From contig MU404075.1 of NCBI GenBank assembly GCA_022695795.1, forward strand, positions 248,001 to 312,000: 64,000 nt of DNA. The letters are read 5' to 3'. The DNA comes from Biscogniauxia marginata. Taxonomy: Eukaryota > Ascomycota > Sordariomycetes > Xylariales > Xylariaceae. A program made the position numbers and the translations under genes. The notes beneath the pieces are model-generated. The model was given only the letters and a program-made list of their open reading frames with translations, was not told where the DNA came from and did no database searches. Each line of letters begins with the position of its first letter. Within the stretch, counting starts at the first letter, position 1. Shown here one piece after another: positions 36,366 to 64,000 of the stretch.

Positions 36366-36434
36366 CTATTCCCTCTCTCTTTAAATCTTTGTTTTAAAGA
36401 CCTCGAGTAAGTTTTTCCCTTTTTATTCCTTATA

Positions 36435-37100
36435 ATGTCTAGTGTTTTAAAGCTACCTGCGAAACCTCGTAAAAATAAGCGGGAGTCCCGGGATTTTTCC
36501 GCTATATATATTTAGTTTTCTAGTTTTAAAGTATTTTTTTATTTTAATTATTTTAAAATTAACTTATCTTGTTTTATGGTTTTTAAATTTAAAACTTATT
36601 TTAACTATATAGTTAAAGCTTATTATTATTATAACAATTCGGGTATTAAGATGTTTAACTTATTTGACATAAGTCAAGAACGCGAGAAATTAACGGTTAA
36701 GCGTCGCAAAATAAAGAAAAAACTTTAATCCTTTAATAATTAATTATAAACCCTCGCAAAATAGTTAATTTATATTCGTAAGTAAAAAGAGTTTTTTTAA
36801 AAACGGGGTTTAAAGATATTAAAACGCGGTTTTTCTTTTATTAAAGAGATAAAAAAGGTGGAGAAGGAAGAACAAGAGCGTTTAAGGGAGGAGCAAGCCA
36901 AACTGGCAATTAAATAGCGTTCGTTAGTCGAGTAGATTAATACTGCTTTTACGGCCGTCCCCTCCTTCGACCTGTCTTTTCTAGATTAGGACCCCGATTT
37001 TCGGGCCCTCCTGGCCGATCCGGGTTCTAACGGTGAAAGTTCTTAAGTTCGTCCGTTAAGTTCCTTAAGTGCTTAAGAGGTTCCCAAGTGTTTTTTTTTA
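36435..37100 (+). pseudogene. Degenerate plus-strand ORF opposite to gag-pol in element A
   Basis: Between the integrase end and the 3' LTR a remnant protein can be read on the plus strand, beginning MSSVLKLPAKPRKNKRESRD and continuing through YYYNNSGIKMFNLFDISQ and DLSFLDQDPDFRALLADPG-like text further on, with scattered stops. The same protein can be read at the same place in element B. Agreement of two separately mutated copies suggests it was a real gene of the element and not chance. Function unknown; the ancestral segment may have been Cys-rich. Confidence 0.5.
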
Positions 37101-40100
37101 GTGAGTAGTCTTCCTATTTAACAAAATACTATAATTAACCTTCGACCCGTCTTAAATCTAGTATCTTTTTTATTTCGTACTTATTAGGGTTTTTTTTAAA
37201 TTCTAGTTAGTTTTTTAATATAACGTTATTTAATACTAGTTTTAAAAGCGAAACATGGAATATAAAATGTATTTTAAATCCTTTTAATAATGTTAATTTA
37301 TAATTAATTTTCAAAATAACCTTTTTAATCCTATATAGTCCTAATTTCTTAAACTTAAGTTTTTTATTAAGTCGTTTTATTTTAATTTAAGGTGTTTTTA
37401 ATGTTACGCTTTATTGTTAATAAAATAAATAAATTATATCTCTTTTCTTAAAAATTAATCCTTTAATTCTTTTTTTATTATAATACTTTGTTATTTTATT
37501 TTAAATAAATTATAACTCTTTTTATAGCCGTTATTATACTACTTAGACCTTTTTAGATAATACCTTTATTCTCGGGGCTTTTATTTCGACTTTTAGTGCT
37601 TTTATGAGTTTAATCGGTTGTCTTTAAACTTCTGCTTTTTACCTGTATATTGCCTCGTATGGTAACATTTTTATGTCCTTGTTAACCGAAGTGTTATATA
37701 TTATTTAGGTTATTAATAATAATTCTACCTAGTTATTTATTTTTTAGTTAATATAACTTTATAAATATTGTTTTATTATTTAGTTCAGGTTTTTTATTTA
37801 TTCGTTTATTTAAAAGTAATACGTTATAAATAACCTTTATTTAACTTTTATTTATTTTATTAGATTTATTTAAAACTTTAAAGTAAATAACTTATCTTTA
37901 TTTGAAATAATACGTTTTAATAATTTATATTTATTAACGTATTCTCTTAAGAAATTAAAGGTTAGTTATTTTACTATGTTTAATTTATTAAATAATAAAA
38001 AATAAGCATATTTCGTAAGTCTATTAACGATTACCTATATACTATTATAAAGTACTTTTATAATAAGATCTTTTGACTTTAAGAGTTTCACTACGAAATC
38101 CCATATAATTATATACCACGCTTTATTAAGTATTTAAGTTAGCTATAATAGTTTATATGGTTTATATCGTGATATTTTAGCCTTATTATAAATGTTGTAA
38201 TTCTTTATAATTCTTTTAATTATTTGTCATATTCTTAGAAAGTCGAATTCTTTTTGAAGTCGTTTTATTGTTTTGAAAATTCCTTGGTGGCTATGTAGAG
38301 GATATTCGTGAAATTCTTTAACGAATTCGTTTTATACTCGTTTTAATACGTATACCTTTTCCTTGTACGAGAGAAGTTTATCGCTAAATCCTTGCTAAAA
38401 TTATAATTATTTTTCTTTTTAACTATAATTTTCCTTGAAACGTTATTTTTAGTTTCTTATATTAATTCGCATATAAATTAATATAATTAATTCGTCATTT
38501 TATTATTTAAATATCTAGATATTTCTTTTATTGATTTTTGATTTATAATTTCCTTTTTTGTTAAGAAAATCTACTTAAATATTTTCTTTTCTTTTAATAT
38601 GCTAGATTTTAAAATTGAATTTAAATAAGAAAATCATTTAACGCTTATATTTTTAATTAAGCGTTTATATTATTATGAATTATATAAGGTTTTTATGGTT
38701 TAAATATATATTAATAAGTTCTTTAGTTTTGTTAAGCCATGATTCTTATTCTTTTAATGCTTTAATAACTATTAATAGTTCTTTATTATAAATCTAATAA
38801 TTCAATTTAGTACCATATAATACTTTAAATAGGTACGCGACTAAGTACTATTTCCTATTATCTTTTAATTACTTTAAAACTACTTTAATAGCGAAATCTA
38901 AAGCGTCTATCTTTAATCGTTTCTTTTTATTTTCGTTTAAAAATTTATATATAACCTTATTAGTTATAACTTCTTTTAGTTACTAAAAAGCCTATCTAGC
39001 TTCTTTAATAAAATAAAAAGCCTTTTTTGTTTTCGCTAGGGTAATTAGTTCCGTTAATGGTTTAGTAATACGCCCGAAATCTTTAATTACTACTATTTTC
39101 TCTTTTTAAATATGGATTTCTCCTAGACTTATTATAAATCCTAGATAATCTAGTTTTTTAATATGCTATTCACTTTTAATTAAATAAATAAATAGGTTTA
39201 CTTTTTCTAGGGTTTCTAACACTTATTCTACATATTTCTTATGTTACTTCTCGTTTTCTAAATAAATTAATATATCGTTTAAATAAACGAATACAAATTT
39301 ATTTAAAAACTTACGAAAAATCGTTATAATTATATGTTAAAATATAGCAAGTATATTAATAAGTTTAAACGGCATAACCTTATATTTATAATGTTTATAT
39401 ATCGTTCGGAATACGGTATATTATTCGTGTTTTTTAGCCATTTTAATTATATAATATTTATCGCAAAGGTTTAGTGTTATAAAGATTTAAGCTTTACTGA
39501 TTTATCTTTTTATAAGTTTTATTAGTAGTAATAAGTATCCGTTTTTTTGGGTTATTTTATTGAGGTGTCGGTAATTAATTATTCGTCGCTATACTAGGTT
39601 TCCTTTTTTATTAATATGTTATTTTTCATTTTTATCGATTTTAAGTATCATAATTACCGGGTATTTTAACGAGGATTTTAATTCTTAAATATATTTTTTA
39701 TTAAGATTCTTTTAAATTCTTTTTTATAATGCTTTTTATTTTTCTTGATTTATAAAATATATTAAGAATAGTTTTAGTTGTTTTCTTTTCTTAAAATGAA
39801 TTTAATAATCCTATTAACTATATTTTAGTAATTCTTTTTTTGTTTTGTTTTTAAATAATTTGTGGAAACGAAGGTACTCGCGTGGTACTTTTTTCGTTAG
39901 ATTTTTAAGCTTGGTTATTTAAATTATATAGGCGATATGTTTCGTTTTTATATTCGTTTTTTTGGAGTTACTTATAATATTTATCTCGTAACCCGTAGTG
40001 ATTAACTCCTCTTATTTTTAATTTTAATAAAGCGTGTTTATCTCGAAATTTATTTGTGAATTACTTTTTTTAAGTTAATTCATTTTTAGTATTATGTCGT

Positions 40101-42800
40101 GACTTAATATATATATAATGTTAAAAATAACTTGCTCGAGATGTCTTTAAATGGTTATCGAAAGAGGGATTATTTTTTTTAGCACTTTATTATTCTTATA
40201 ACTAAATATATATCCTTCGAAGTTTTGTAATTAATATGAATTTTATTTATATATTTATAGTATTTTATCTTTTTAAGCTATCTCGGTTAAGATATAGCTT
40301 TTATTTACTCTTGAATTTATAAGAGCTTTATATTTTTTTTTATTATACCTAACTTTAGTTATAATAGTATTATCGAGTCCCGACTAGACTTCATATAAGG
40401 ACTTGCTATTTATGGCTTCTCGCTGCCTTATTAGCAAGAGCCTTTGCCGTTTTTTGGTTTTTCACGCTTTTTCTTTTTTGGGTTTTTTTAAGTTGTTATA
40501 ACCCGGATGTTTTTCTATTCTTGGGCTTTTATAAGAGCGTGTTTTTAGTAATCATTATTTAAATAGTTTCTTTAATTCTTTTTTAAGGGCTTTTTTATAA
40601 CTTAAATCTGTTTTTTTATTAACTCAAAATTTCTTGAGATTTTAGATTATTTTTAAATAAAGTGTATAATTTTTAAGTTTATTTATTAGGGGTAACTTAA
40701 TATTTCTTTATAGATTTATATTAACTTTTAAAAACTTCCTCTTTTTTTTGAGGTATACCTTGACGATTTGTTTATAACTTAGTTTAGTTACACATATTTT
40801 TACTTATTATTTTGTTAAGTGCTTTTTTATTAAGCCGAATAAACTAATGTTATATTTAGCGCGTTTTTCGAGCTATTATGAAAGATATAGTTTTTTTTAT
40901 AATTCTTATAACTCGTTCTTAACTTCGTCTTCTTTAAAACCCGCTTTAAGCAAGTCGTGTACGTCGCATGGTATTAAGGTGTAACATATGTAACTTTTAG
41001 TAATTATTTCGTTGCTTCTTTCGGAACTCGGGTGAAAATAATATGCTTTAAAGTAATGTGGCCATCGTGGGACGTTGTCGTAAATATACTTATTTTCTTT
41101 CGTGTCATTACTCTTTAATTTTTGAGGATAGTAACCGGCTTTATCCTTAAAACTTTTATGTATTTAATAGGCGTTATTAATATAAAAGCTTTAATATAAC
41201 GATACGTGTTTTCTTGAGTTTTAATAGACATCGCAATTGTTATTTATATAAAACCTTTAATTTAAGTTGTTATACTAGCTTTTTCCTTAGTAGGTTTTAT
41301 ACTTATCGTCGTTATAATGGCTTTAATGTAACTTATTATGGTTTAACTTAATTCTTAAGTCGTATCTTAATTTATAGTTATTATATTTATATAGTAATTC
41401 GTTTTCGTTATATCTTTATTTAGCTTATTTTAATGTAAAATATCTTAAGTATAAATAATTATTTTTTAAATAGTTTTTACGGTTAACTTAATAATATTTA
41501 TAAAAATTTTTTATAAAGACTTCCTCGTTTTTCTTTGCCTTAATAATAATAATAATAAATACTTAGTTTACCTTCTTGTTATTTTCGAAATGAACTCTCG
41601 TTTTAAAAGTTTTTTTCTCGGGTTAAAGAATCCCTCTTGTTCTTAGTTCCTATTTCTTAAGACTTCGGTACTCGTTTTTATAATGTCCTTTCTTTTTATA
41701 ATTAAAACACTTAATAGTTAATTTATCTCGTTTTTTTTGTTCCTTTTAAGTAGCGTTAATTTTAATAAAGTTTGATTTAGTTTTAATGCTTTTTCTAGTT
41801 CCAGCACCGCTTTTGTGATTTCCTCTTTTTAATTAATCGCCATTCTTTCATTATACCGTTTTTTTCTTTTTAAGGTACCGTTCAAAGTTCTTATTATTAA
41901 TAACAATTATTATTATAACGTAATTATTAAACTTTCCTAGATTCTTTTCTTTATATAAATTTATTTTATATAGCTTATTCTTTATATAGTTTTTTAGTTT
42001 TTAATAAAACAAGTAATATAAGCTCTTAATAAGTAGTTATAACTAGCTTACGAGTTTTTTAAACTTAATAACATAATTTAAAGCCTTTTTATTTTGTCGT
42101 AGTTTATGAAGTCGAGCTTCGGCTTATTACTTAAAAATTAAATTGCCAAACATAGATTTAAGTTGTTTTTTAAACTCCTTATAATTCTTGAAGACTTTCT
42201 TCGTGTCTTTTTAGGCGTTTAATCCGTTTTCTAAATGATTTTTTTAACACTAGTTAAAACCAGGTTAAGGCAGTTTCGACGAGGAGTTAAGATACCGTGA
42301 GAACCTTTTGTTTCTTAGTGGTAATCATTTTATAATAAAATCGTAAGTAGGTTCCGGCCTAGATTAAAAATCCTTTTAAATCGCTTAACCCATTATATTT
42401 ACTAAGTGTAATTAATTTAAAACCCTTTACGTTAAAGGTTATTATATTGTTTTTGTCGTTTAAGTTATTAGAGTTGTTATCGTTTAAAGGTGGTTTTAGT
42501 TACTTGTTTTTAGGAGGTAGGGGTTGTCTTGCCTATTTGTTTTCTTTTTTAGGTGTTTCTTCTTCCTCCTCTTTTTTAGCCGCAACTATAATTAACTCTT
42601 ATATTGGTTCTTTTAAACCTTTTTATTGTACTATAAAAGAATTTAAAGCTTTCGTTTAAGAGCTTATTAACTGTTATTCTTTTACTTATTTCTTTTTTTA
42701 TTGCTCTCTAGTTTTAGGGGGTATGCTTATCCTGGGACTATTCAACCAAAAGTCCCTCCTCTTGAATCAATATCAAGCATTAATCAAGGAGCTATTAAAA

Positions 42801-43243
42801 TGTGACGAACCTTCTTATGTATTCCTAGTTAGCTAACTTTACAGGTAAGTACGTATTAGGTTTTCTTAATTTAAAGGTAATAATGAATTAAGATTAGTTT
42901 AAGAGATTTTAAGGTATTCTCATTATAATATTAAGGAGTGACTATAATTTTAGATTAATAGCTAAAAAACTAAAACAAATAACTAAATATAAAGGAAATT
43001 TTATTATTTTATTATTTTTTCTTTTTTATATATTTTTCCCTTTTTATATGTTAGATACTTATTAAATTTAACTGGATTTTAAATTACTTTAGATTTAGTT
43101 ATTAACACTTTTTTTATATCTTAGATTTATTAAGATCCTAGTTACGTAATATTATATTATATTTTCCTTTTTTAGAGGTTTATTTCGGGGTCTTTTTAAC
43201 TCGTTTTGTTCTTTAGTCTTTTCGGACTAGTTAATTTGTAACA
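42801..43243 (-). repeat. Shared LTR between elements A and B
   Basis: 443 bp, TGTGACGAAC to TTTGTAACA. It serves as 5' LTR of A and 3' LTR of B, so the two elements are in direct tandem with one LTR in common. That arrangement arises by LTR-LTR recombination or by insertion into an LTR. Confidence 0.8.
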
Positions 43244-43315
43244 CTATTTCTTCTCTTTTTTGATTTTTAATTTTAAAGATTTCTTTTTAAGTAAATTCTT
43301 TTTTTTTAATATATT

Positions 43316-43950
43316 TGGTATTAAAAAACCGGTTACGAGGGTTCGTAAAAACTAGCGCGAGACTCGTAACTCTTCCGCCGCCTATATTTAACTTTATAAA
43401 TACGAGGTTTTTTTTTGTTCTCCTTATTTTAAAAGCGGTTTTTCTTGTTTTATAATTCCGGGTTTTAAGATTTATTTTAATTATATTATTAAAGTTCGTT
43501 ATTATTACGACGATTCGAACATCGAAATGTTATTTTTATTAAATATAAGTCGTAAACGCGATTATATTATTTCCGAATGTCGAAAAGTTAAAAAAAAGCT
43601 TTAAACGTTAGTTAGTTATTTAACCCACTTATATAAATAAAAAGAGTTTCTTTAAAAACGAGACCTAGAAATGTTAAAGCGTGTTAACTATAAAAAAGAG
43701 AAATAAAGGCGATTAAAGGCGAAAAACGTTTGTCTTATTAAAGAATAATAACGAACGGAGAAATCGCTACGTTTATTTGAATTTAAGTAAAGTATATTTA
43801 TTTCGAAGGTTTTCCCCTTTTTCGATTAGTCTTAACTAGATTTTTAGACTTTCCTGGTCGGTTTAGGTTTTAGCGGTGAAAATTCGTAAGTTTATTTGTT
43901 AAGTTCTTTAAGTGGTTAAGTAGTTCTTAAATGTTTTCCTCGAGTAAGTA
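43316..43950 (+). pseudogene. Degenerate plus-strand ORF opposite to gag-pol in element B
   Basis: Counterpart of the plus-strand remnant in element A. Readable pieces include RETRNSSAAY, IIKVRYYYDDSNIEML and ISRKRDYIISECRKVKKKL, matching in order the pieces of A. It supports a third gene of the family transcribed against gag-pol. No function can be assigned. Confidence 0.5.
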
Positions 43951-46900
43951 ACTTTCTTATTTAATAAGATATTATAATTAATTATTAACTTATTTTGAAT
44001 TTAATATCTTTTTTAATTTGTACTTATTAAGTTTTTTTTTAAATTTTAATTGGTTTTTTAATATAGCGTTTTTTAGTATTAGTTTTAAAAGTGAAATATG
44101 AAATATAAAATGTATTTTAAATCTTTTTAATAAAGAAAATTTATAATTAACTTTCAAGATAACTTTTTTAACTTTATATGGTTTTAATTTTATATGGTTT
44201 TAACTTTTTAAATTCAAGTTTTTTATTAAGCCGTTTTTATTATTACGCCTTATTATTAACGAAGTAAATAAACTATGTCTCTTTTTTTAAGAATTAATTC
44301 CTTAATTCTTTTTCGGTTATAACACTTTATTATTTTGTTTTAAATAAATTATAACTTTTTTTGTAATCGTAATTGTATTATTTAAACTTTTTTAAATAGT
44401 ACTTTTACTTTCGGGGCTTTTATTTCGATTTTTAGTGCTTTTATAAGTTCGATCGGTTATTTTTAGATTTCCGCTTTTTAACTATATATTGCTTTATGTA
44501 ATGACATCTTTATGTTCTCGTTAATCGAAGTATTATACGCTATTTAAGCTATTAATAGTAGTTTTACTTAGTTGTTTATTTCTTAGTTGATATAACTTTA
44601 GAGGTATTATTTTATTATTTAATTTAGTCTTTTTGTTTATTTATTTAACTTTTATTTGTTTTATTAAGTTAATTTAAAACTTTAATGTAAATAACTTGTT
44701 TTTATTTAAAACAATACGTTTTAATAATTTATATTTATTAATATACTTTTTTAAAAAACTAAAAACTAATTATTTTATTGTGTTTAATTTGTTAAATAAT
44801 AAGAAATAAGTATATTTCGTGAGTTTATTAATAATTATTTATATGTTATTACAAGGTATTTTTATAGTAGGATTTTTTAACTTAAGAAGTTTCATTATAA
44901 AATCCTATGTAATTTTATGTCACGTTTTGTTAGGTATTTAAGTTAATTATAATAGTTTATATGGTTTATATCGTGGTGTTTTAGCTTTATTATAAACGTT
45001 ATAATTCTTTATAATTTTTTTAATTGTTTGTCGTATTTTTAGAAAGTCGAATTCTTTTTAAAGTCGTTTTAACGTTTTGAAAATTCCTTAGTGACTATAT
45101 AGAAAGTGTTTGTAGAATTCCTTAATAAATTTATTTTGGATTTATTTTAATATGTAAACCTTTTCTTTATACGAGAGAAGTTTGTTATTAAATCCTTATT
45201 AAGATTATAATTACTTTTCTTTTTAATTATAACTTTTTTTAAAACGTTATTTCTAGTTTTTTATATTAATTTACATATAAATTAATATAATTATTTTGTT
45301 ATTTTGTTATTTTGTTATTTAAATATTTAGATTTGTTTTATTAATTTTTGATTTATAGTCTCCTTTTTTACTAAGAAGATTTATTTAAATGTTTTCTTTT
45401 TTTTTAATATAATAAATCTTAAAATTGAATTTAAATAGGAAAATCATTTAATATTTATATTTTTAATTAAACGTTTATGTTATTATAAATTATATAAAGT
45501 TTTTATAATTTAAATAAATATTAATAGGTTTTTTAGTTTTATTAAGCTATAGTTTTTATTCTTTTAATGCTTTAATAATTACTAATAATTCCTTGTTATA
45601 GATTTAATAGTTTAGTTTAACATTATATAGTGCTTTGGATAAGTACGCGACTAGGTATTATTTTTTATTGTTTTTTAATTGTTTTAAAACTGCTTTAATA
45701 GCGAAATCTAAGGCGTTTATCTTTAGTTGTTTCTTTTTGTTTTCGTTTAGAAATTTATATATAACCTTATTAGTTATAACTTTTTTTAGTTGTTAAAAAG
45801 CCTATTTAGCTTTTTTTGTTTTTGCTAGGGTAATTAATTCCGTTAATAGCTTAGTAATTCGCTTGAAATCTTAAATAAGTTATTTAACGTAGTTAATAAA
45901 GCTAAGAAATACGCGTACGTTTATAATACTTTTGGGTTTTAGTTAATTCTTAATTATTATTATTTTTCCTTTTTAAATACGGATTTCTCTTGGGTTTATT
46001 ATAAACCTTAAGTAATTTAGTTTTTTAATATGTTATTTACTTTTAATTAAATAAATAAGTAGGTTTGCTTTTTTTAGGGTTTTTAACATTTATTTTATAT
46101 GTTTCTTATGTTCTTTTTCGTTTTTAAGTAAATTAGTATATCGTTTAAATAAATAAATATAAATTTATCTAGAAACTTACGAAGAACTATTATAATTATA
46201 TGTTAAAATGTAGCGAGTATGTTAATAAGCTTAAATGGCATAACCTTATATTTATAATGTTTATATATCGTTTAAAAAGCGGTGTATTATTCGTGTTTTT
46301 TAATTATTTTAATTATATAATAATTATTGCGAAGATTTAATGTTATAAAGATTTAAGCTTTATTAATAATAACGAGTATTTTTTATTATTATTATTTCGT
46401 TAAGGTGTTAATAATTAATTACTCGTTTTTATACTAGATTTCTTTTTTTATTAATATGTTACTTTTCGTTTTTATCGACTTTTAACATTATAATTGCTGG
46501 GTATCTTAACAAGGACTTTAATTTTTAAATATATTTTTTATTAAAATCCTTTTAAAATCCTTTTTATAGTGCTTTTTGTTTTTCTTGATTTATAAGATAT
46601 ATTAAGAATAATTTCGGCTATTTTCTTTCTTTAAAGTAAATTTAATGATTTTATTAATTATGTTTTAATAATTCTTTTTTTGTTTTGTTTTTAAATAATT
46701 TATAGAAATAAAGGTACTCGCGTAATACTCTTTTTATTAGATTTTTAAGCTTAATTGCTTAAATTATATAGGCGATATATTTCGTCTTTATATTCGTTTT
46801 TTTAGTGTTACTTACGATATTTATTTTATAACCCATAATAATTAACTCCTTTTGATTTTAATCTTAATAAAGCGTATTTATCTCGAAATTTATTTGTGGG

Positions 46901-49853
46901 TTACTTTTTTTAAGTTAATTCATTCTTAGGATTATATTATAATTTAATATATATATAATGTTAAAAATAACTTACTCGAGATGTTTTTAAATGGTTATTA
47001 AAAAAAGGATTATTTCTTTTAATATTTTATTATTCTTATAACTAAATATATATTTTTTAAAGTTTTATAGTTTATATAAACTTTATTTATATATTTATAA
47101 TATGTTGTTTTTTTAAGTTACCTTAGTTAAAATATAGCTTTTATTTGTTTCTAAGTTTATAAGGGCTTTATACTCCTTTTTATTATATTTAACTTTAATT
47201 ATAATGGTATTATCGAGTCTTAATTAGACTTTATATAAAGACTTATTATTTATAGCTTTTTACTGCTTTATTAGCGAGAGCCTTTATCGTTTTTTGGTTT
47301 TTTATGTCTTTTCTTTTTTAGGGTTTTTTAGGTCGTTATAGCCTTTATAGTTTTTTATTTTTAGGCTTTCATAGAAGCGTGTTTTTAGTAATCGTTATTT
47401 AAATAATCTTTTTAACTAATTTTTAAGTAATAAGGGGTAAAAGGTTTATTTTTTATATAGAACTTTACATATTAAAACTTTAATTCTTTTTCGAGGGCCT
47501 TTTTATAACTTAAGTTTATTTTTTTGTTAATTCGAAGTTTTTTAAGGTTTTAAATTATTTTCGAATAAAAGGTATAATTCTTAGATTTACTTGTTAAAAG
47601 TAACTTAATATTTCTTTATAGGTTTATATATATTTCTAAGAACTCTTTTTCTTTTTTAAAGTATACCTTAACAATTCGTTTATAACTTAATTTAATTATA
47701 CGTATTTTTATTTATTATTTTATTAAGTACTTCCTTATAAATCTAAATAGATTTATATCGTACTTAACTCGCTTTTCGAGCTAATATAAAAAATGTAATT
47801 CTTTTTTAACTTCGTTTTTTTCGAAACCCGTTTTAAGTAAATCGTGTATATTACATAATATTAAAATATAATATATATAGCCTTTAATAATTACTTTATT
47901 GCTTTTTTCGGAACTTAAATAAAAATAATATACTTTAAAATATTATGGCTATCGTGGGACGTTATTATAAATGTATTTATTCTTTTTCGTGTTATTACTT
48001 TTTAGTTTTTAGGAATAATAACCAATTTTATCTTTAAAGCTTTTATGTATTTAATAAGCGTCGTTAATATAAAAGCTTTAATATAGCGATATATGTTCTT
48101 TTTGTGATTTTATTATTTCATTCTTATTAAGGTGAAATGTTTCGTTTTTTAGTTGTTTAACCACTTTTAGATTTAGTTTAAGCTTTTCATTTAATAATTT
48201 ATCAAGTTAGTTAGTATTATTTAAGTTTTAATAAACATCGTAATTGTTATTTATATAAAACTTCTGGTTTAAGTTATTATATTTGTTTTTTTAGTGTGTT
48301 TTACACTTATTATTATTATAACGGCTTTAATATAGTTTATTATGGTTTAACTTAACTCTTAAGTCGTATCTTAATTTATAAGTATTGTACTTATACGGTA
48401 GTTCGTTTTCGTTATATTTTTACTTGGCTTGTTTTAATGTGAGGTACTTTAAATATAAATAATCGTGTTTTAAGTAATTTTTAAGGTTAACTTAATAGTA
48501 TTTATAGATTTTTTATAGGAACTTCCTCGTTCTTTTTTGCTTTAATAGTAGTAATAATAAATACTTAGTTTACCTCTTTATTATCTTCGAAATAAACCTT
48601 TAATTTAAAGGTTTTTTTCTCGAATTAAGGAATTCTTCTTATTTTTAGTTTTTATTTCTTGGGATTTCGGTACTCGTTTTTATAATGTCCTTTTTTTCTA
48701 TAATTAAAACACTTAATAGTCGATTTATTTTTATTTTTTTGCTCTTTTTAAGTAGCGTTAATTTTAATGAGGTTTAACTTAGTTTTAATGCCTTTTCTTA
48801 TTCCGGCACTACTTTTATGATTTCCTTTTTTTTGTTAATCGCCGTTCTTTCGTTATATTGTCTTTTTTTTAAGATATCGTTTAAAGTTTTTGTTATTAAT
48901 AATAATTACTATTATAACGTATTTATTAAACTTTTTTAAGTTCTTTTTTTATATAGGTTTATTTTATATAACTTATTTTTTATATGGTTTTTTAGTCTTT
49001 AATAAAATAAATAAAATAAATTTTCGATAAATAGTTATAACTAGTTTACGAGTTTCTTAAACTTAATAATATAGTTTAAAGCTTTCTTATTTTGTTATAG
49101 TTTATAAAATCGGGCTTCGGTTTATTATTTAAGGATTAAGTTATTAAATATAAACTTAATTTAGTTTTTAAACTCTTTATAATTCTTAAAGACCTTTTTT
49201 GTGTCTTTTTAGGCGTTTTGTTTATTATTTAGGTGATTTTTTAATACCGGTTAAAACCAGGTTAAAACAGTTTTAACAAGGAACTAAAATACCGTGAAAA
49301 CTTTTTATTCCTTAGTAATAATTATTTCATAATAAAATTATAAGTAGGTTTCGGCTTAAATTAAAAATCCTTTTAAATTACTTAATTTATTATATTTATT
49401 AAGTATAATTAACTTAAAACCTTTTATATTAAAGGGTCGTTATATTATTTTTATCGTTTAAGTTATTAAGGTCGCTATCGTTTAAAAGTGGCTTTAGTTA
49501 TTTATCTTTAAAAAGTAAAGGTTATTTTACTTATTTATTTCTTTTTTAAGTGCTTTTTCTTTTTCCTTTTTTTTTCCTTGAACGATTTTTCTTGCTAAGC
49601 TTTAAAGGTGTCCTCTTAAGGCTCTTTTTTAATTATAATTATAATTAATTTTTATGTTGGTTCTTTTAAACCTTTTTATTATATCGTAAAAAAAGTTAAA
49701 GCTTTCATTTAAAAGCTTATTAATTATTATTTTTTTAATTATTTCTTTTTTTGTTGCTTTTTAGTTTTAAGGGGTATATTTATCTTAGAATGGTTCGACC
49801 AAGAGTCCCTTCTTTTAAATTAATGTTAAGCACTAATTAAAGAGCTATTAAAA

Positions 49854-50419
49854 TGTAACGAACCTCCTTATATATTCCTAGTTAACTAACTTCACAAGTG
49901 AATATATACTGGGTTTTTTTGATTTAAAGGTAATAATGAATTAAGATTAATTTAAGAGATTTATAATGTCTTGTTCGTTAAAGAGATTTTAAGGTATTTT
50001 TATTATAATATTAAGAAGTAATTATAGTTTTAAATTAATAATTAAAGAATTAAAAAGAATAACTAGACATATAAAAGACACCGTTTTTTTTATACTTGTT
50101 TATTTTACTTTTCATTCTTTATAATTAGTATGTTGGATACCTTTAGATGAGTTTTATTTATACTTATTTATTCTTTACTGGATATTACTAGATATGTTCT
50201 ATTTACACATATCCATTCTTCACTGGATGTTGCGAGATGTGTTTTATTTACACACATTCATTTTCCACTGGATGTTGCTGGATGTGTTTTATCTACACAT
50301 ATCCATATCACGTGACAATAGGTTACTTTCCCTTCCAGGATTTATGTCCGGTGTAGAAGCAAGAATAGTGGGAATAGTACCCCTGTCATTTGATTGCTTA
50401 CCCTGGTTGGTTCGTAATA
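49854..50419 (-). repeat. 5' LTR of element B with an internal 45-bp minisatellite
   Basis: 566 bp, about 100 bp longer than its relatives. The extra length is three tandem copies of a 45-bp unit (ACTGGATGTTGC... type) at about 50177-50310. The LTR ends TTCGTAATA and almost abuts an inverted LTR. Confidence 0.78.
50177..50310. repeat. 45-bp minisatellite inside an LTR
   Basis: Three imperfect copies of a unit containing ACTGGATGTTGC and TTTACACATATCCAT. An ORF across it (50194-50466) is a by-product of the repeat and is not a gene. Confidence 0.8.
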
Positions 50420-50421
50420 AA

Positions 50422-50875
50422 TATTACGAATTAATAAAGGTAAAAGGAATAAAAGGAATTATATGATTTAAGGTTATATAACTCTAAAAAGAATTCTTTA
50501 TTAAACTTTTAAAAATAAAAGAGAATACCAAGATTCTTTATTAAACTTTTAAAAATAAAGGAGAATATTAAGATTCTTTATTAAACTCTTAAGAATTAAG
50601 GAGAATATTAAAATTACTCTCTTAAAAAAAAAGTATAAATAAAAATAGATTTCCTTTATATATAGTTATTCATTTTAGTTCCTTAACTATTAATCTAAAA
50701 TTATAATTACTCTTTAATACTATAATGAAAGTACCTTAAAATCTCTTTAACGAATAAAGCATTATAAATCTCTTAAATTAATCTTAATTCATTATTACCT
50801 TTAAATTAAGAAAACCCAGTACATACTCACTTGTGAGTCAGTTAACTAGGAACATACATAAGGAGGTTCGTCACA
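50422..50875 (+). repeat. Inverted LTR copy
   Basis: Reverse complement of the LTR family: the family end TGTGACGAACCTCC appears as GGAGGTTCGTCACA at 50862-50875, and the other end as TATTACGAA at 50422-50430. It abuts the preceding LTR head to head with only two bases between, forming the arms TTCGTAAT and ATTACGAA. It contains its own 40-bp tandem repeat. Confidence 0.78.
50493..50612. repeat. 40-bp tandem repeat inside the inverted LTR
   Basis: Three copies of a 40-bp unit (ATTCTTTATTAAACTTTTAA and following bases). It lies at the same place in the LTR where other copies carry a 45-bp or 7-bp tandem array. Confidence 0.85.
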
Positions 50876-50876
50876 C

Positions 50877-51249
50877 GAGTAAGCCACTTGATTTCCTATA
50901 TAAAATCGACTTTTTTAAAAATTCATAACTTTACACGTAAAAATCGTAAAAATCTCGAACATTTTTTATTAGTTATATAATTGTACGGTTTTACTAAAAT
51001 TAACATCGAAAAAATTAATTTTTAAAAACGCGAAAAGAAAACGCGTAAAATTTATAATTAAAATAAAACGTATAAACCTTTTTACGTATTTTTTTTATAT
51101 ATTTCATTTTCATTTTTTTTGATTTTAGTTTTAATTAAACCTTATAATTATATAACTAAAAAAAGGTCCGAGATTTTTATGATTTTTACGTGTAAAGTTA
51201 TGAATTTTTAAAAAAGTCGATTTTATATAGGAAATTAAGTGGCTTATTC
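50877..51249. mobile_element. Foldback / MITE-like element with arms of about 104 bp
   Basis: The left arm (50877-50982) and the right arm (51146-51249) are near-perfect reverse complements, including AAGCCACTT, CCTATATAAAATCGAC and CATAACTTTACACGTAAAAATC. The centre of about 163 bp is AT-rich with no ORF. It lies directly next to the end of the inverted LTR. I see no clear target-site duplication. It could be a non-autonomous DNA transposon or a foldback repeat. Confidence 0.75.
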
Positions 51250-51267
51250 ACTTGTATAGCTTACTTA

Positions 51268-51729
51268 TGTGACGAACCTCCTTATGTGTTCCTAGTCAGC
51301 TGACTTTACAGGTGAGTACGTACTAGGTTTTCTTAATTTGAAGGTAATAATAGGTTAAAATTGGTTTAATTAATTCACAATGTTATATTCGTTAAAGAGG
51401 TTTTAAGGTACTTTCATTATAGTATTAAAGAGTGACTATAGTTTTAGATTAATAACTAAAGAACGAATAACTAGATATATAAGAAATCCCCTTCTTTTTA
51501 TATTTATTCTCCTTGGTACATATTCCCTCTTTACATTAACTGTTATATAAGTAGAGTTTGTCCGGATTTGAGATTAACTTAGATCCCATTTGATATGATT
51601 TGAGAGTAATTTAGATTACATCACGTGACGTCTTATTATGTTCTAGAAAGGACCGCCCTGTATTTATATTCGTGGTCCGTGTCTTAATACCCTTGTAGGA
51701 AATCCCTTTAACATAGTTGGTTCGTAACA
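51268..51729 (-). mobile_element. Solo LTR with 5-bp target-site duplication
   Basis: 462 bp, TGTGACGAACCTCC to GTTCGTAACA. It is flanked by ACTTA on the left (51263-51267) and ACTTA on the right (51730-51734), a 5-bp duplication as gypsy integrases make. No internal region remains, so it is an LTR-LTR recombination product. Confidence 0.85.
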
Positions 51730-52375
51730 ACTTACTTATAAAACATGTTAGTTATAATTCGCGTATTTATATAATAAATAAAAATACGTTTAATAATTTA
51801 GATTTTAAAAAGTTATAATTATTTTTATTTGTTATTAAATTTTTATTTGTTATTAAATTTTTATTTGTTATTAAATTTTTATTTGTTATTAAATTTTTAT
51901 TTGTTATTAAATTTTTATTTTTATTTTAAAGGGTTTTAACTCGGAAAATATAATAAATTAATTAACTTAAATTACGCATTAAAAAAACCGAATACTTAAT
52001 ATAAAAAAGGTATTTAGTTTTTAAAACGTAAAACTAAAAAAGATAATTTAAATAATAATAATTATTAATTAATTTAATGTTATATAAATGTTTTTTAATA
52101 GTTAAAATTACGAAAGTTATAAAAACTAGCTTACTCGCTTATATAACTCACTTATTTATAAGACACGTTAATTAAAACTACGAAAATTTTAAAAACTAAT
52201 TTATTTATTTATATAGTTAATTTACTTATAAAACACGTTAAATTTAATTATAATTTAATAATTAAATAACTTCACTTTTATATAATAACTAACTTAGTTT
52301 CTTATAATTTATAAATTATAAAAAGGTTAGTTATTATAAAGAAATATTTTAAAAAAGGTTAAATACCTAGTGATA
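51730..52375. other. AT-rich degraded sequence at the right end of the island
   Basis: Continuing AT-rich DNA of RIP-like composition. It includes a repeated block around CTTATAAAACACGTTA (three variants near 51735, 52160 and 52225). Composition returns to normal at about 52375. No coding signal. Confidence 0.55.
51822..51917. repeat. 18-bp tandem repeat
   Basis: About five copies of TTTTTATTTGTTATTAAA, nearly perfect. Confidence 0.9.
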
Positions 52376-55612: not shown

Positions 55613-57473
55613 ATGGATGTTCTTTTAACGACGAAAGTTCTAATTTCTTGCTTATTCGGTTTCCTATTTTGGAAAATCCTCCTGATTGGGCAACGGCCAA
55701 AAGACTTTCCACCAGGTCCTCCCACCGTTCCCATACTGGGAAATATCCATCTAGTAGGGCCCCAATAGCAAGGTACATCAGAAGACCTCTTGTTACTGAT
55801 ATTAATGATTTGTAGATCCCTAAGCACAACGTTCATTTGCAGTTCCAGAAATGGGCGCAGGAATATGGACCAGTATACAGCCTAATATTAGGCAGTAAAG
55901 TCATGATTGTCCTCTCTAGTGACCGTGCGATAAAGGACCTCTTGGATAAGAGAAGCGCTATATATAGCGACCGGATGGATTTATACGTAGGCCAAACTTT
56001 GGCAAGCGGAGGTTTGAGAATCTTGATGATGGTAAGCTGAATATGGCTAGCTGATCGAAACGTTGGTGCATTGCTAAGACTGTTGCGTTTCCAGCGATAT
56101 GGACAAACTTGGAGAACTGTGTGTCATCATACACTCATTAAACGAAAAGAAATCTTAGTTGACGACCTCCTAGATTCGGCGGATCATGCACAATCTTCTC
56201 AATATACATGCCGCCCGTTCCTTCGAACCCTATCAAGTTCTTGAGAACCAACAGATGATATATGATATTCTTAACGAGCCCCAGAACTTTACGCAACACG
56301 TTCGTCGCTACGCAAACTCTCTGACTACCACGGTCACGTTTGGGTACGACCTCCCTTCCCCGGTACCCTTTTATGGACCGAGACTGAGCCTGCAGGTACC
56401 GAGTGCCAACATACGAAGACCCCCACTTCCAGGAGCTCTTTAAAGTCTTCGGTGATTTTGTCCTGCTTGCACAAACTGGTACAGCGGCGCTTCTTGATTA
56501 TATGCCTGCACTACGAATCCTTCCGGCATGGATACTTCCCCAGAAGCGACGTGCCAAAGCCCATCATCGTCCAGAAAAGACCCTTTACAGATACCACTGG
56601 GACAAAGCGAAAGCTAATTCTATGTCTTCAACAAGTCCAAATCCCTGTTTCACTGTGGGACTCATTCAGGAGCAGAGAAAGCATGGCTTTGACGACGACT
56701 TTGCTTCATATATTACTGGAACACTCCTCGAAGCAGGGAGCGACACGACCGCAAACACTCTGCTCGGGTTCCTGTGTGCCATGCTTGTTTTCCCCGAAGT
56801 CCAACAGCGCGCAAAAGCTGAGCTCGACCAAGTGGTCGGGGCCAACAGAATGCCGTTGCTAGAGGATGAGCCGCATTTGCAGTACATACGTGGATGTGTC
56901 AAGGAATCTCTCCGCTGGATGCCAACCACCATTTTAGGCGCAATTCCCCATGCTCTCACACAAGATGATGACTACATGGGTTTCAAACTGCCAAAAGGAG
57001 CGGGAGTTCTTAACAATGTTTACACAATCCACAATGATGACTCTCGTTACCCCCATCCACGCCAGTTCGATCCTGAACGTTTCAAGGATGACAAGCAATC
57101 TGTTTTTGATGCAGCCGTCAACCCAGACGTATCCAAACGTGACCACTTTACTTTCGGGGCCGGACGGCGTATCTGTCCAGGTATGCATGTAGCAGAGCGA
57201 AGTCTCTTTCTGGCCATTTCGAGGCTGCTGTGGGCATTTGACTTCAAAAGGCCAGTTGATGACGATGGAAACGAGATTGTCCCGGATTCTAGCCAAGTCA
57301 CCCAAGGCTTCGTGTGTGCACCACTGCCTTTCAAGGCTGTCATTACGGCCCGGGACGAAAGACGGGCGGAAATTGTTCGCAACGGATGGAAAATTGCACA
57401 GCAAGAGAATCTGGTACCGGAAACAATGCAGTGGAGGAGCTTTCCTGAGGGCATTCGGACCGCAAATTCATAG
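55613..57473 (+). CDS. Cytochrome P450 monooxygenase
   Basis: Membrane-anchored P450, probably oxidising a cluster intermediate at the ER. Model: join(55613..55753, 55816..56031, 56095..56118, 56174..56343, 56396..57473), 542 aa. The N terminus is a hydrophobic anchor (MDVLLTTKVLISCLFGFLFW) followed by the proline hinge FPPGPPTVPILGN. Exon 3 encodes only eight residues (RYGQTWRT), completing the conserved C-helix text RYGxTWR-IRRIMHNLL. I-helix AGSDTT lies at 297-302, KESLR (ExxR) at 353-357, and the heme loop FGAGRRICPG at 437-446 with C444 as heme ligand. All motifs are present and no stops occur, so it should be functional. It resembles the fungal group that includes O-methylsterigmatocystin oxidoreductase-like enzymes. 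The substrate is unknown; peptide-side-chain oxidation is possible given the neighbours. Confidence 0.93.
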
Positions 57474-57860: not shown

Positions 57861-58791
57861 TCAATTCTGAATCCCGTCAGCATCACTATACCTGTGCTTC
57901 TCGGTCCACTCCTTGAGAGCCTCGAAATCACGGCATTGGTGAGTAGAACCCCAACCTGTGACACCACCTATGGTCTCATTTCTCTTCTCCAACGTTGGAT
58001 CCGCTGCGCACATAAGAGACTGGCGAATAAAATCGAAGCAATGCTGCATGTGAGGTGAAGGTATACCATCCTGTCTCTGAATGGATGATCCGGAATCCTC
58101 ATCCGGCCTGGTGCTACCTATCTCAATGGCTGCATAGTACCCATGTCGTAGCATGTCCTGTAGGGAACTTTTCGTCAGCATATAACAGCGTCGCGTGGAT
58201 CTGCAGGCTGGCCTGGGCAGCAACTATTTGGCATAGAAAACTTACCAGACAATGCAATTGATGGAATGCTGACACGCAGTATCGGTTCACAATACCTGAT
58301 ATATTGGCTTTGACAAAACCTCGACCCTCTAGTAGATGTTAGCGTGAGATAACTATGCAATGTGACGTGACACACTAACTAGGAATCAGCCTTTCCCAAG
58401 CCGAATTGGAGGCATCCGATATAGCTTCCGTATACAACGGGTCTCTGCGGAATGTCCTTAGGGTAGTTGATGTCCCAGATGCAGTAGCTTCTGATCCAGT
58501 CAATCCTGAAGTGTCTGGAATGTTGACCGTGAATGCTCGGGAATATTGACCTTCTGGATATTGCAATTCACCTGACGTTATACTGCGCCAGAGATATCCC
58601 GTCCCAAATCCACTCAGAAAGACAATGGATAATACCGCAAACAAGACCGGTTTTGATAGACCTCGTTGACGATGTATAGGCTTTGGACAGCATTGTGGCT
58701 CTGCCTCGTCCCAGTAGGCGACTCCACGCCCATCATCCCGGTCATTTCCTTCAAGGAGAGAGGCCAAGGACAACTCGGAAGAGATCGACAT
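57861..58791 (-). CDS. UstYa-family (DUF3328) oxidative protein
   Basis: UstYa-type protein; relatives in ustiloxin, asperipin and cyclochlorotine pathways carry out oxidative macrocyclisation or chlorination/hydroxylation of peptides. Model: exons 58791-58380, 58328-58246 and 58157-57861, 263 aa, a usual length. A cytosolic N terminus is followed by one membrane segment at residues 48-68 (PVLFAVLSIVFLSGFGTGYLW) and then a lumenal domain. Both family motifs are present: H160-Q-L-H163-C164 after KGRGFV, and H201-M-Q-H204-C205 in PHMQHCFDFIRQSLMC. The start was chosen at MSISSEL because the longer ORF upstream lacks family resemblance. It is divergent from the precursor-fusion gene with 665 bp between, and convergent with the P450. 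Frame is intact. Confidence 0.92.
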
Positions 58792-59456: not shown

Positions 59457-60342
59457 ATGTATCGAAACTTCGCCTTATTTGTTGCCTACATCTTGGTGAA
59501 TCATGCGTTGGGTTTACCGGTGAAGTCCTCAGGTAAGTCTAGAGCTGGCCTTTTGGAATTAAAGACTGACATTTCACTTAGATGATTCTACCAACTGGTA
59601 TGCAGACTCTGCATCCGGGATTTCCAGTGCTCTCAATTCTCGCAAGGAGGATACAAACTGGTACGCCGACTCTGCCGCTGGCATGGCGGAGTCCTTACCC
59701 GAGAAGCTACGCCGTAGCGAAAAGACGAATTGGTACTCCGATTCGGCATCCGGAATGGCCGAATCACTGGATAAGCGGTCCGGTATGTCGAATGAAGAGA
59801 AGCAGAGTTATGAGAAGTCCCTCAGAGACTGGATCTACAATGACATGCGAGGAGAACCTTTGCGTGAAAGTTCCGAGAGAGGTAAGGCATTCTTCGAGTT
59901 CACCCCAAAGCCGCGCCATGATATAGTCGATCGTTGGCATGTCCCGGCCGAGCTACAAGAGCGCTTCAATACCACTCACTCGGATGCTGAACGCGTCAGC
60001 ATATTGAATTACTACCTGATGGTGACCGATCGTGAGCCCAAGTCGGCACGAGAACTTGGTTTTACGCCAACGTTTGACGCGCCTGGACTCACGGAAGCGA
60101 ACGAGGTCGGATACGGATACGCTCTCGCTGGCCAGCACCAATACCATTGCGTCAATTTTGTGGCCGACGCCATCGACATCGGCAAGGAACATTTGAACGA
60201 CTTCTACCTGAAACATGCCATTCATTGCCTGGGCCTGTTGAAATGGCTGGCACCACAGTTGACTATGAAACAACCCACAAGTTTTTTACTTACTGGGGCA
60301 AATGAAAGACTCCTTAACGATTATCCGCAAACAATTGATTAG
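59457..60342 (+). CDS. Putative RiPP precursor fused to a UstYa-like HxxHC domain
   Basis: Model: join(59457..59532, 59582..60342), 278 aa. The intron is a standard GTAAGT...TTAG. Residues 1-20 (MYRNFALFVAYILVNHALGL) look like a signal peptide. Residues 29-91 hold three tandem repeats, TNWYADSASG (29-38), TNWYADSAAGMAESL (50-64) and TNWYSDSASGMAESL (74-88), each followed by a basic pair: RK at 46-47, RR at 69-70 and KR at 90-91, the last two being classic Kex2 sites. Residues from about 125 to the end are a globular domain with H211-Q-Y-H214-C215 and H237-A-I-H240-C241, the two HxxHC motifs of UstYa/DUF3328 proteins. Repeats and motifs lie in one uninterrupted exon, so the fusion does not depend on splicing. 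Known: fungal dikaritin RiPPs come from secreted, Kex2-cut repeat precursors and need separate UstYa oxidases. Inferred: here precursor and oxidase are one protein. The motif spacing is tighter than usual, so the domain may be divergent. Confidence 0.82.
59590..59778 (+). repeat. Three tandem core-peptide repeats with dibasic spacers
   Basis: Repeat units start at Thr29, Thr50 and Thr74, so the periods are 21 and 24 residues. N-W-Y, D-S-A and G are invariant; the fourth core residue is A, A, S. Spacers differ more than cores, which is what selection on a processed core would leave. Confidence 0.85.
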
Positions 60343-62641: not shown

Positions 62642-64000
62642 ATGCCTTCCATTGATGCCTCCAGCGTTGATGCTCTAGTGCAGCAGATCGAATTGATTGT
62701 TCGCCATGCTGAAACTAATCCTGAGCTCATCAACGAGACTCTACGTCGCCGATTAGGCGAGGCTGGGTCGAAGTTATCCATGGTTATGGAACCACCTCAT
62801 GAGACTGTTCATAGAATCGGTGGCACTGTAAGTCCTCCATACTATTCTGGCGACTTAGACTGCTAATAGACCTGTAAACCAGCCATTACAGGCAGCGCTT
62901 GCTCATGTTGGCATCGAAAAGGGCATCTTCAAGCTCATCACTAGCCATGATAACCTCGGTGTCTCCGGCTTGACTCTGGCCCAGCAGACTAAGACTGATC
63001 CTAGCTTGATGAGTAAGTAGTCACGGCGTTACAGGCTTGAGTACCAAACTTACTATTCGTAGAACGCCTTTTACGTTACTACCAGTCCCTTGGAATGGTG
63101 TCTCAGCTCGGCGAAGACAGCTTTGGCCCGAGTAACATTACCAAGAACCTAACATCCCCTATTTGCAGCGTTGGAATCACCTTCTAGTAAGTATTATTTG
63201 AGTCATCTCAAATAATCAACTTATTAACCACATTAACAACATGAAGTTTCCAGGTTTTAAGTCAGGCCTTCCTCGCAGTTCCCCAACTCCTAAATGAAAT
63301 TAACTATAAGAACCCGACCGATCCGAACTTGTGCGCCTGGAATATCGCACACCAGACGGATGAACCTCCTTGGAAATGGCTTCAAGCCCATCCGGAACTC
63401 TCGGCAACCGTATCGAATTGGATGGCAGTGCATCGCGATGGCCTCCCGAGCTTTTTGGATGCAATCGACTTTGAGCAGGAGTTTGGACAAGAAACAACCG
63501 AGTCTACGCCCTTGCTTGTCGATGTAGGCGGAGGAGTTGGTCAACAATGCGTAGCTTTCCGACAGAGACATCCTACTCTTCCTGGTCGCGTTATTCTTCA
63601 AGACTTACCACAAGTCATCGCACAGGCGGAGTCAAGCCCCCTTCCAGGCTTCCGAGACGGTGGTATTGAAGTACAAGCCCACAACTTCTTCACCCCACAG
63701 CCGGTAAAAGGTAAAATATTCTAGTTATCTCGGTGGGAATTCACATTTCAACGAAATCTGACTTTTTCCTCGTAGGGGCTCGCGCTTATTATCTTCGCAA
63801 CATTCTCCACAACTTTACCGATGACGACTGCCGAAAGATCTTAGAAGGCATCAAGCTCAGTATGAGCCAACAGTCTGTGATTCTAATCGACGAAATAGTC
63901 CTCTCTGAAACCGGCGCTCCGTTGACAGCTTCTCAGATGGACATGACTATGCTGACCAGTCAAGCCGCGAGGGAACGCTCGGAAATTGATTGGAAATCTT
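62642..64000 (+). CDS. O-methyltransferase (class I SAM-dependent, fungal secondary-metabolism type), cut by window end
   Basis: SAM-dependent O-methyltransferase of the family that includes sterigmatocystin O-methyltransferases. Model so far: join(62642..62827, 62892..63012, 63063..63186, 63247..63710, 63776..>64000); every junction keeps the frame. An N-terminal dimerisation region (AALAHVGIEKGIFKLI, LMKRLLRYYQSLGMV) is followed by the SAM-binding motif VDVGGGVGQQ at 235-244, then AHNFFTPQPVKGARAYYLRNILHNFTDDDC, whose His-Asn-Phe text is the usual active-site region. The C-terminal end lies beyond the window. I start at MPSIDASS; an upstream in-frame ATG at 62588 adds an unlike extension. 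It lies 2.3 kb from the fusion gene and is plausibly the next cluster member, but its substrate is unknown. Confidence 0.9.

What the first reader, a model, noticed from the sequence alone, without database searches (positions are those of the whole stretch)
59457..60342. RiPP precursor repeats and a UstYa-like oxidase domain in one protein
A secretion signal, three NWY-containing repeats separated by dibasic sites and two HxxHC motifs stand in one 278-aa protein, with repeats and motifs in one continuous exon. In described dikaritin pathways the precursor and the UstYa oxidases are separate genes. Borosins (methyltransferase fused to core) and BURP-domain plant peptides show that self-modifying precursors exist. 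A UstYa counterpart would be a new architecture; I do not know of a described one.
Basis: partly seen in the sequence, partly recalled or inferred. Interest (0 to 1): 0.93.

Follow-up and report, generated by a model that had tools for sequence, protein, structure and literature searches.

The report
Fungal peptide precursor carrying own oxidase
A fungus encodes, in one secreted-looking protein, repeated short peptides with protease cut sites plus a domain that resembles the copper enzymes that usually modify such peptides from a separate gene; related fungi have the same design, which would be a new way to build peptide natural products.

Summary
Window 59457-60342 encodes one 278-aa protein, identical to predicted Biscogniauxia marginata protein P0001: hydrophobic N terminus, three TNWY[AS]DSAxG units with basic sites, and a C-terminal domain with HQYHC and HAIHC. 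It belongs to a family of 46 database proteins. All 31 with more than 41 residues ahead of the domain carry the repeats (32 of 46 carry any; 165 units, 124 followed by KR/RR), so the fusion is real and conserved. Cores differ between subfamilies (TNWYxDSA, PPWYRDS, PIWYKTA). Both HxxHC motifs are kept in 43 of 46; the other three are broken or cut short. Relation of the domain to UstYa/DUF3328 is supported but remote: 16 bits against a 25-bit Pfam cut-off; one of 500 permuted profiles is as good. It lacks that family's membrane helix and extra cysteines. An ordinary UstYa gene stands next door; eight of its twelve closest database hits share organism and contig length with fusion proteins. Best reading: a fused precursor-oxidase RiPP whose UstYa-like copper domain, probably with the neighbouring UstYa, oxidises the Trp-Tyr cores before Kex2 cleavage. 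Chemistry is untested. Nine searches of the paper library showed no such fusion.

The parts
59457..60342 (+). whole gene of the fused precursor-oxidase protein, 278 aa
   Evidence: identical to P0001
59457..59532 (+). exon 1: signal-like N terminus MYRNFALFVAYILVNHALG and first residues
   Evidence: 8 of 45 relatives show a hydrophobic N terminus by the same measure, many of the rest being cut at the start
59533..59581 (+). 49-base intron (GTAAGT...TTAG) ahead of the repeats
   Evidence: spliced frame equals P0001
59590..59637 (+). repeat unit 1, TNWYADSASGISSALN
59641..59646 (+). RK basic site after unit 1 (not a classic Kex2 site)
59653..59700 (+). repeat unit 2, TNWYADSAAGMAESLP
59710..59715 (+). 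RR site after unit 2
59725..59772 (+). repeat unit 3, TNWYSDSASGMAESLD
59773..59778 (+). KR site between repeats and C-terminal domain
59791..60339 (+). C-terminal domain (residues 96-278), divergent UstYa-like
60136..60150 (+). HQYHC motif, residues 211-215
60214..60228 (+). HAIHC motif, residues 237-241
57861..58791 (-). neighbouring stand-alone UstYa gene (P0031, 263 aa, one hydrophobic membrane-type helix); exons 58791-58380, 58328-58246, 58157-57861
   Evidence: PF11807 65.7 bits on its last frame; exons checked against F5X99DRAFT_139391, identical
56388..57473 (+). cytochrome P450 (part of the gene)
   Evidence: PF00067 190.5 bits
52877..54087 (-). DMATS-type aromatic prenyltransferase in two frames that cover successive parts of the profile
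   Evidence: PF11991 111.2 and 127.6 bits; TIGR03429 127.4 bits on one piece, below that model's cut-off for a whole protein
63245..64000 (+). O-methyltransferase, running past the window end into L009
   Evidence: PF00891 27 and 52.7 bits on successive frames

Best explanation
The gene encodes a fused fungal RiPP precursor-oxidase. Shown by sequence: a hydrophobic signal-like N terminus, WY-containing core repeats separated by basic sites, and a C-terminal domain with two conserved HxxHC motifs, in one polypeptide, in a conserved family linked to an ordinary UstYa gene. Inferred: the chain enters the ER; the C-terminal domain folds as a UstYa-like pair of helices whose HxxHC motifs bind two coppers; alone or as a heterodimer with the membrane-anchored neighbouring UstYa it oxidises (crosslinks or dehydrogenates) the Trp-Tyr of the attached cores. 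Kex2 in the Golgi then cuts the cores from each other and from the domain. DMATS, P450 and O-methyltransferase genes nearby may finish the peptide.
For: Fusion present in all 31 of 46 relatives with more than 41 residues ahead of the domain, in Sordariomycetes and Dothideomycetes. KR/RR after 84 of 114 units against at most 30 in 2000 shuffles; KR/RR follows 124 of 165 units in the larger set, W kept in 162 of 165. HxxHC pair in 43 of 46, spacing 26 in all 43. UstYa is the Pfam family matched by most members, 33 of 44 at E up to 1, best E 1.6e-4; in 9 of 10 relatives scanned in detail the match lies over profile positions 101-173. A UstYa HMM scores 20 of 40 domains above all 3000 decoys. Profile-profile alignment puts the first HxxHC in register in every local run and both motifs in some; with match columns only, 1 of 500 permutations does as well. 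Predicted order strand-helix(HxxHC)-helix(HxxHC)-strand in both the fusion domain and the neighbouring UstYa. Relatives of the neighbouring UstYa share contig length and organism with fusion proteins in 8 of the top 12 hits and 0 of the other 30. HxxHC(x)nHxxHC is reported as the copper site of DUF3328 enzymes and its alanine mutants as dead (PMC12435403, abstract and passages).
Against: Pfam score 15.5-16 bits, below the 25-bit cut-off. hhalign probability only 20-52% in local runs, driven by 15-42 columns round the motifs; global-mode runs gave no match (0.1-1.3%). The domain has no membrane helix and 38 of 40 domains have no cysteine beyond the two motif ones, whereas the copper enzyme CctR works as disulfide-held dimers. 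Residues conserved after the second HxxHC in UstYa (D207, Q211, C215, D218 of P0031) are not kept in P0001, read by eye. The C-domain HMM put only 8 of 42 UstYa proteins above all 3000 decoys. The profile search listed no UstYa protein. A conserved separate UstYa may do the chemistry. Five of 13 named fusion proteins (P0008, P0009, P0011, P0013, P0027) had no linked UstYa among the hits, a list limited by that search. In the window's copy the first site is RK. No product or transcript evidence.
Confidence: 0.6

Rival explanations
1. Tethered helper: the C-terminal domain is a UstYa relative that no longer catalyses alone. It docks the cores on the separate UstYa (as recognition follower or dimer partner), and that enzyme does the oxidation.
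For: Linkage of an ordinary UstYa gene in eight genomes. The domain lacks anchor, extra cysteines and the D/Q/C residues after the second motif. DUF3328 enzymes are reported to work as dimers. Two homologous DUF3328 proteins are described as indispensable for cyclising ustiloxin (PMC7329392, passage; section 7).
Against: All six histidine and cysteine residues of the motif pair are kept in 43 of 46 members, which a pure docking domain would not need. The domain changes more slowly between eight species than its partner UstYa (mean distance 0.19 against 0.35).
Confidence: 0.25
2. Plain Kex2-processed repeat protein: the WY peptides are secreted unmodified (signal or hormone-like) and the C-terminal domain has some other metal-binding role.
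For: The repeat unit WYxDSAxGVxxSL is nearly invariant among the first 30 relatives, unlike fast-changing toxins. In Umemura 2020, 22% of such repeat proteins had a DUF3328 gene nearby, so most did not (abstract).
Against: UstYa, DMATS, P450 and O-methyltransferase genes around it; UstYa linkage in eight genomes; HxxHC pair in 43 of 46.
Confidence: 0.08
3. The domain is not related to UstYa and the HxxHC pair is convergence.
For: Sub-threshold scores, similarity limited to the motif region. Fold searches gave no match, which is uninformative because no UstYa relative was found among solved structures.
Against: Permutation test 1 of 500, decoy test 20 of 40 domains above all 3000 decoys, same predicted element order, and linkage to a UstYa gene.
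Confidence: 0.07

Closest known systems
Dikaritins (ustiloxin, phomopsin, asperipin-2a pathways)
   Same: Precursor with Kex2-spaced repeats containing Tyr; UstYa/DUF3328 gene adjacent; methyltransferase nearby.
   Different: There the precursor and the DUF3328 oxidases are described as separate genes (PMC7329392 section 7). Here an HxxHC domain is part of the precursor; no tyrosinase match lies on this contig; a DMATS prenyltransferase is present.
UstYa/DUF3328 (PF11807) copper enzymes, e.g. CctR
   Same: HxxHC(x)nHxxHC on two consecutive predicted helices.
   Different: Below Pfam cut-off; no membrane helix; no extra cysteines; motif spacing 26 against 27 to 106 in the 41 of 42 compared UstYa relatives with two motifs; carries its own repeats.
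Fused burpitide cyclases of plants (AhyBURP and others)
   Same: Core peptide and copper oxidase in one autocatalytic polypeptide; split versions also exist (PMC12186524 passages). The DUF3328 site is likened to the BURP four-histidine copper site (PMC12435403 passages).
   Different: BURP domain is a different family; plant; no match of P0001 to it at E up to 1.
Borosins (omphalotin OphMA type)
   Same: Modifying enzyme fused to the core peptide (recalled).
   Different: Enzyme is an N-methyltransferase with the core at the C terminus (recalled); the two families that P0001 matches at E up to 1 are UstYa and DUF6348.
Kex2-processed repeat proteins (KEPs)
   Same: Hydrophobic N terminus, repeats, KR/RR sites.
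   Different: KEPs are defined by signal and repeats, without a fused enzyme domain; the pipeline of Le Marquer 2019 set the C-terminal part aside (PMC6339444 passages).

Membership tests
UstYa / DUF3328 (PF11807) | Pfam gathering score of 25 bits | tested here: not met
   15.5-16 bits for this protein; up to 18.1 bits among ten relatives scanned in detail
UstYa / DUF3328 (PF11807) | HxxHC(x)nHxxHC motif | tested here: met
   43 of 46 members; P0020 and P0086 end before a motif and P0030 looks broken
UstYa / DUF3328 (PF11807) | remote sequence relation by profile | tested here: met
   1 of 500 permutations as good; 20 of 40 domains above 3000 decoys, reverse test only 8 of 42; global-mode alignment fails
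UstYa / DUF3328 (PF11807) | N-terminal membrane helix anchoring the domain | tested here: not met
   only the signal-like N terminus is hydrophobic; best 19-residue window beyond residue 30 is 0.64 against 1.98 in P0031
UstYa / DUF3328 (PF11807) | extra conserved cysteines for disulfide-held dimers | tested here: not met
   38 of 40 domains have only the two motif cysteines; 42 of 42 UstYa relatives have four or more from the first motif on
UstYa / DUF3328 (PF11807) | copper- and O2-dependent oxidation | not testable with these tools
   needs protein
UstYa / DUF3328 (PF11807) | same fold as a solved member | tested here: inconclusive
   no solved relative found by sequence; fold searches gave nothing significant; only element order compared
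Kex2-processed repeat precursor | three or more repeats between KR/RR sites | tested here: met
   met in the family (84 of 114 stretches); in this copy three units with RK, RR, KR
Kex2-processed repeat precursor | secretion signal | tested here: inconclusive
   hydropathy only; no signal-peptide predictor on hand
Dikaritin pathway | DUF3328 gene beside the precursor | tested here: met
Dikaritin pathway | tyrosinase gene in cluster (not in all) | tested here: not met
   none of the 13 PF00264 matches in the genome lies on contig C21; the search scores only its best candidates
Fused burpitide cyclase | BURP domain | tested here: not met
   only UstYa and DUF6348 match P0001 at E up to 1

The most novel reading that the evidence does not exclude
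A new class of self-modifying fungal RiPPs: each chain carries its WY cores and its own binuclear copper UstYa-type oxidase, which crosslinks Trp and Tyr in cis in the ER before Kex2 sets both free; the neighbouring UstYa is its membrane-bound dimer partner. It would be the fungal counterpart, evolved independently, of the fused BURP cyclases of plants.
Probability: 0.4. Interest if true: 0.92.

Novelty: new variant of a known kind. Interest (0 to 1): 0.82.

Why it matters
Dikaritin mining looks for separate precursor and DUF3328 genes, and DUF3328 is called by a Pfam cut-off that this domain misses; the named members here are called hypothetical or uncharacterized protein. If the domain is active, it gives an anchor-free, single-chain UstYa system with substrate attached, handy for studying how these copper enzymes work, and a second case (after plant BURP proteins) of a copper cyclase fused to its substrate.

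Tried and rejected

The first hhalign run, in which I had set the global option, gave no match, as did the global runs; local runs did match. A 100-permutation control was clean (maximum 24.6 against 28.7), but later controls showed 7 of 300 and 18 of 500 permutations above the real score. In one search, 10 of 313 were above it, all at 129 to 138; the two that I printed were 3- and 5-column alignments made by gap columns. With match columns only, 1 of 500 remains (33.4 against 28.85). The domain set had uneven borders and is superseded.

Mirror-tree test of fusion domain against linked UstYa over 8 species: r -0.06, p 0.65, with a truncated UstYa (P0034) in the set; on gap-free columns r 0.37, p 0.037. 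I treat this as weak. The count of cysteines had a slicing error (three domains shown with none) and was redone. One search counted 76 of 114 stretches with KR/RR because it read overlapping pairs only once; one search gives 84.

dN/dS between the three repeats could not be had (dS returned as not computable). DUF6348 matches of some relatives (11 of 44, best E 1.3e-9) lie mostly in the repeat region in P0001; I take them for a composition effect.

Mis-joined gene models: rejected, because repeats and domain share one exon here and the same join is seen in 31 of 31 members that reach far enough upstream. Paralogues in this genome: none found (one weak match, E 0.33, on another contig).

Nine searches of the paper library showed no listing of a UstYa/DUF3328 domain fused to a precursor. 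I read passages or sections of seven papers, not all that were listed. The library lacks most subscription papers, and supplement look-ups were capped at 0, so some of these proteins may already be listed in print as KEPs.

Full report
What is there. The window is bases 248001-312000 of contig C21 of a 45.3 Mb fungal assembly. The public copy of the protein names the organism Biscogniauxia marginata, of the Xylariales. At 59457-60342 lies a two-exon gene: exon 1 59457-59532, intron 59533-59581, exon 2 59582-60342. The 278-aa product equals the predicted protein P0001. It begins with a hydrophobic stretch, followed by three units TNWYADSASG, TNWYADSAAG and TNWYSDSASG. RK, RR and KR follow the units, and then comes a domain with HQYHC (211-215) and HAIHC (237-241). 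Repeats and domain share one open exon. Between the repeats, silent codon differences equal or outnumber changing ones (6/6, 7/6 and 10/3 of 16 codons in the three comparisons), which fits selection on the protein but is too little for a rate.

The family. A database search found 30 proteins, this one included, and a profile search brought the set to 46. 32 of 46 carry WY units, 165 in total, one to ten per protein. All 31 with more than 41 residues ahead of the domain have them, and P0021 with 33 does too; the 14 without have at most 41 residues ahead or start inside the domain, and look like cut gene predictions. W is kept in 162 of 165 units; Y was part of the search pattern. KR or RR follows 124 of 165 units. 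In the first 30 proteins 84 of 114 stretches after a unit have KR/RR, against 16.7 on average and 30 at most in 2000 shuffles. Three core types appear: T[ND]WYxDSAxGVxxSL in the main branch, PPWYRDS in the branch with Cladosporium and PIWYKTAPAAEA in P0079. The Trp-Tyr pair is thus the fixed point of the core, and the residues round it vary between branches. Named members come from Sordariomycetes and Dothideomycetes (for seven names). A tree of 40 domains places the Dothideomycete Periconia in a well-supported five-row group whose other named members are Xylariomycetidae sp. FL0641 and Xylariaceae sp. FL1272, two rows being unnamed. That hints at transfer of the gene between classes.

The domain. 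Both HxxHC motifs are present in 43 of 46 members at a spacing of 26. The exceptions are P0020, which ends before the second motif, P0086, which ends before the first, and P0030, which looks broken. Pfam UstYa is the only family at E up to 1 that covers the HxxHC part of P0001, at 15.5-16 bits, below the 25-bit cut-off. It is matched at E up to 1 by 33 of 44 members, best 1.6e-4, and in 9 of 10 scanned in detail over profile positions 101-173. An HMM of 42 UstYa relatives scores 20 of 40 domains above all of 3000 shuffled decoys; the reverse test does so for 8 of 42. Local profile-profile comparison aligns Y-x5-HQ-x-HC with its UstYa counterpart and in some runs the second motif too. Probability is only 20-52%, global alignment fails, and one of 500 permutations is as good. 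AlphaFold2 gives strand 205-207, helix 208-225 with the first motif, helix 232-251 with the second and strand 255-257. For the neighbouring UstYa it gives strand 150-156, helix 157-181, helix 200-216 and strand 221-223. The order is the same, but the models could not be superposed here. The domain lacks the membrane helix of UstYa, and 38 of 40 domains have no cysteine outside the motifs. My judgement is a remote UstYa relative, not a member by Pfam's rule.

The neighbourhood. Divergently transcribed from it, 665 bases apart, is an ordinary UstYa gene (P0031), the only PF11807 match on this contig among 34 in the genome. Its nearest relatives lie on contigs of the same length, from the same named organism, as fusion proteins in eight cases: this genome, Xylaria sp. 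FL1777, X. bambusicola, X. scruposa, Xylariomycetidae sp. FL0641, Periconia macrospinosa, Zopfia rhizophila and Xylariaceae sp. FL1272. All eight are among the top 12 of 42 hits and none among the other 30. Contig length is a stand-in for shared contig; the contigs themselves could not be fetched, and two of them are over 900 kb, so nearness is not shown there. Locus numbers differ by one or two in X. scruposa, FL1272 and FL1777 and widely in the other five, this genome included although its two genes are adjacent, so the numbers say little. Four of the top 12 UstYa hits have no fusion match, one of them on a 2187-base contig. Five of 13 named fusion proteins have no linked UstYa in the list. 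A DMATS prenyltransferase, a P450 and an O-methyltransferase lie near the pair. Their conservation in other species was not tested. No tyrosinase match is on this contig.

How it most likely works. DUF3328 proteins are described as binuclear copper enzymes whose HxxHC(x)nHxxHC pair lies on two helices of a dimeric four-helix bundle, and alanine changes in the motif kill activity (PMC12435403, abstract and passages). The fusion domain keeps these ligands without anchor or disulfides. I infer that it acts on the attached cores in the ER, perhaps as a mixed dimer with the anchored UstYa, and that Kex2 then cuts at the sites between cores and before the domain. Copper, the reaction and the partner are all inferred.

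Against known systems. In ustiloxin, asperipin-2a and phomopsin pathways precursor and DUF3328 proteins are separate genes, and where DUF3328 genes accompany repeat-precursor genes they lie on average 3.09 genes away (PMC7329392: abstract; section 7; section 6 part 1; passages). The words fused and fusion do not occur in that paper's main text. Plant burpitide cyclases exist in fused and split forms (PMC12186524, passages), so a fused UstYa would be a parallel. Nine library searches listed no such fusion, and none of six WY-core strings occurs in any held paper. Of the other papers I saw passages only (PMC6339444; PMC12048977; PMC7099791; PMC8403587). The JACS 2025 paper on a DUF3328 cyclase is not held.

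Verdict. The fusion is real, conserved and, as far as I could search, undescribed. Relation to UstYa is probable, self-modification plausible and open.

Noticed in passing
window 36001-52000: A block of about 16 kb with only 18-26% G+C and two open frames of 90 aa or more between 36000 and 52500 separates a polyketide synthase locus from the peptide cluster; it may be repeats degraded by repeat-induced mutation, which I did not test.
   Followed up: partly
window 18922-26666 (-), 31461-33084 (-), 34139-34963 (+): Highly reducing polyketide synthase pieces in several frames, a flavin monooxygenase and a medium-chain reductase; frames change often, so introns or decay.
   Followed up: no
window 12650-14532 (+): MADS-box-like start ([27 protein letters not shown]; name recalled) followed by a long proline- and glutamine-rich frame.
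   Followed up: no
L009:4856-5446 and L009:2469-3215: A second O-methyltransferase-like frame just below its cut-off (21.6 against 22.3 bits) and a fungal rhodopsin-domain membrane protein downstream of the window.
   Followed up: no
P0010, P0006, P0007, P0014, P0019: The Dothideomycete Periconia sequence sits in a starred five-row group whose other two named members are Xylariomycetidae, with its UstYa partner on a contig of the same length; possible transfer of the pair between classes.
   Followed up: partly
P0001 and partners: The fused domain changes more slowly between eight species than the linked stand-alone UstYa (mean distance 0.19 against 0.35 on gap-free columns).
   Followed up: partly
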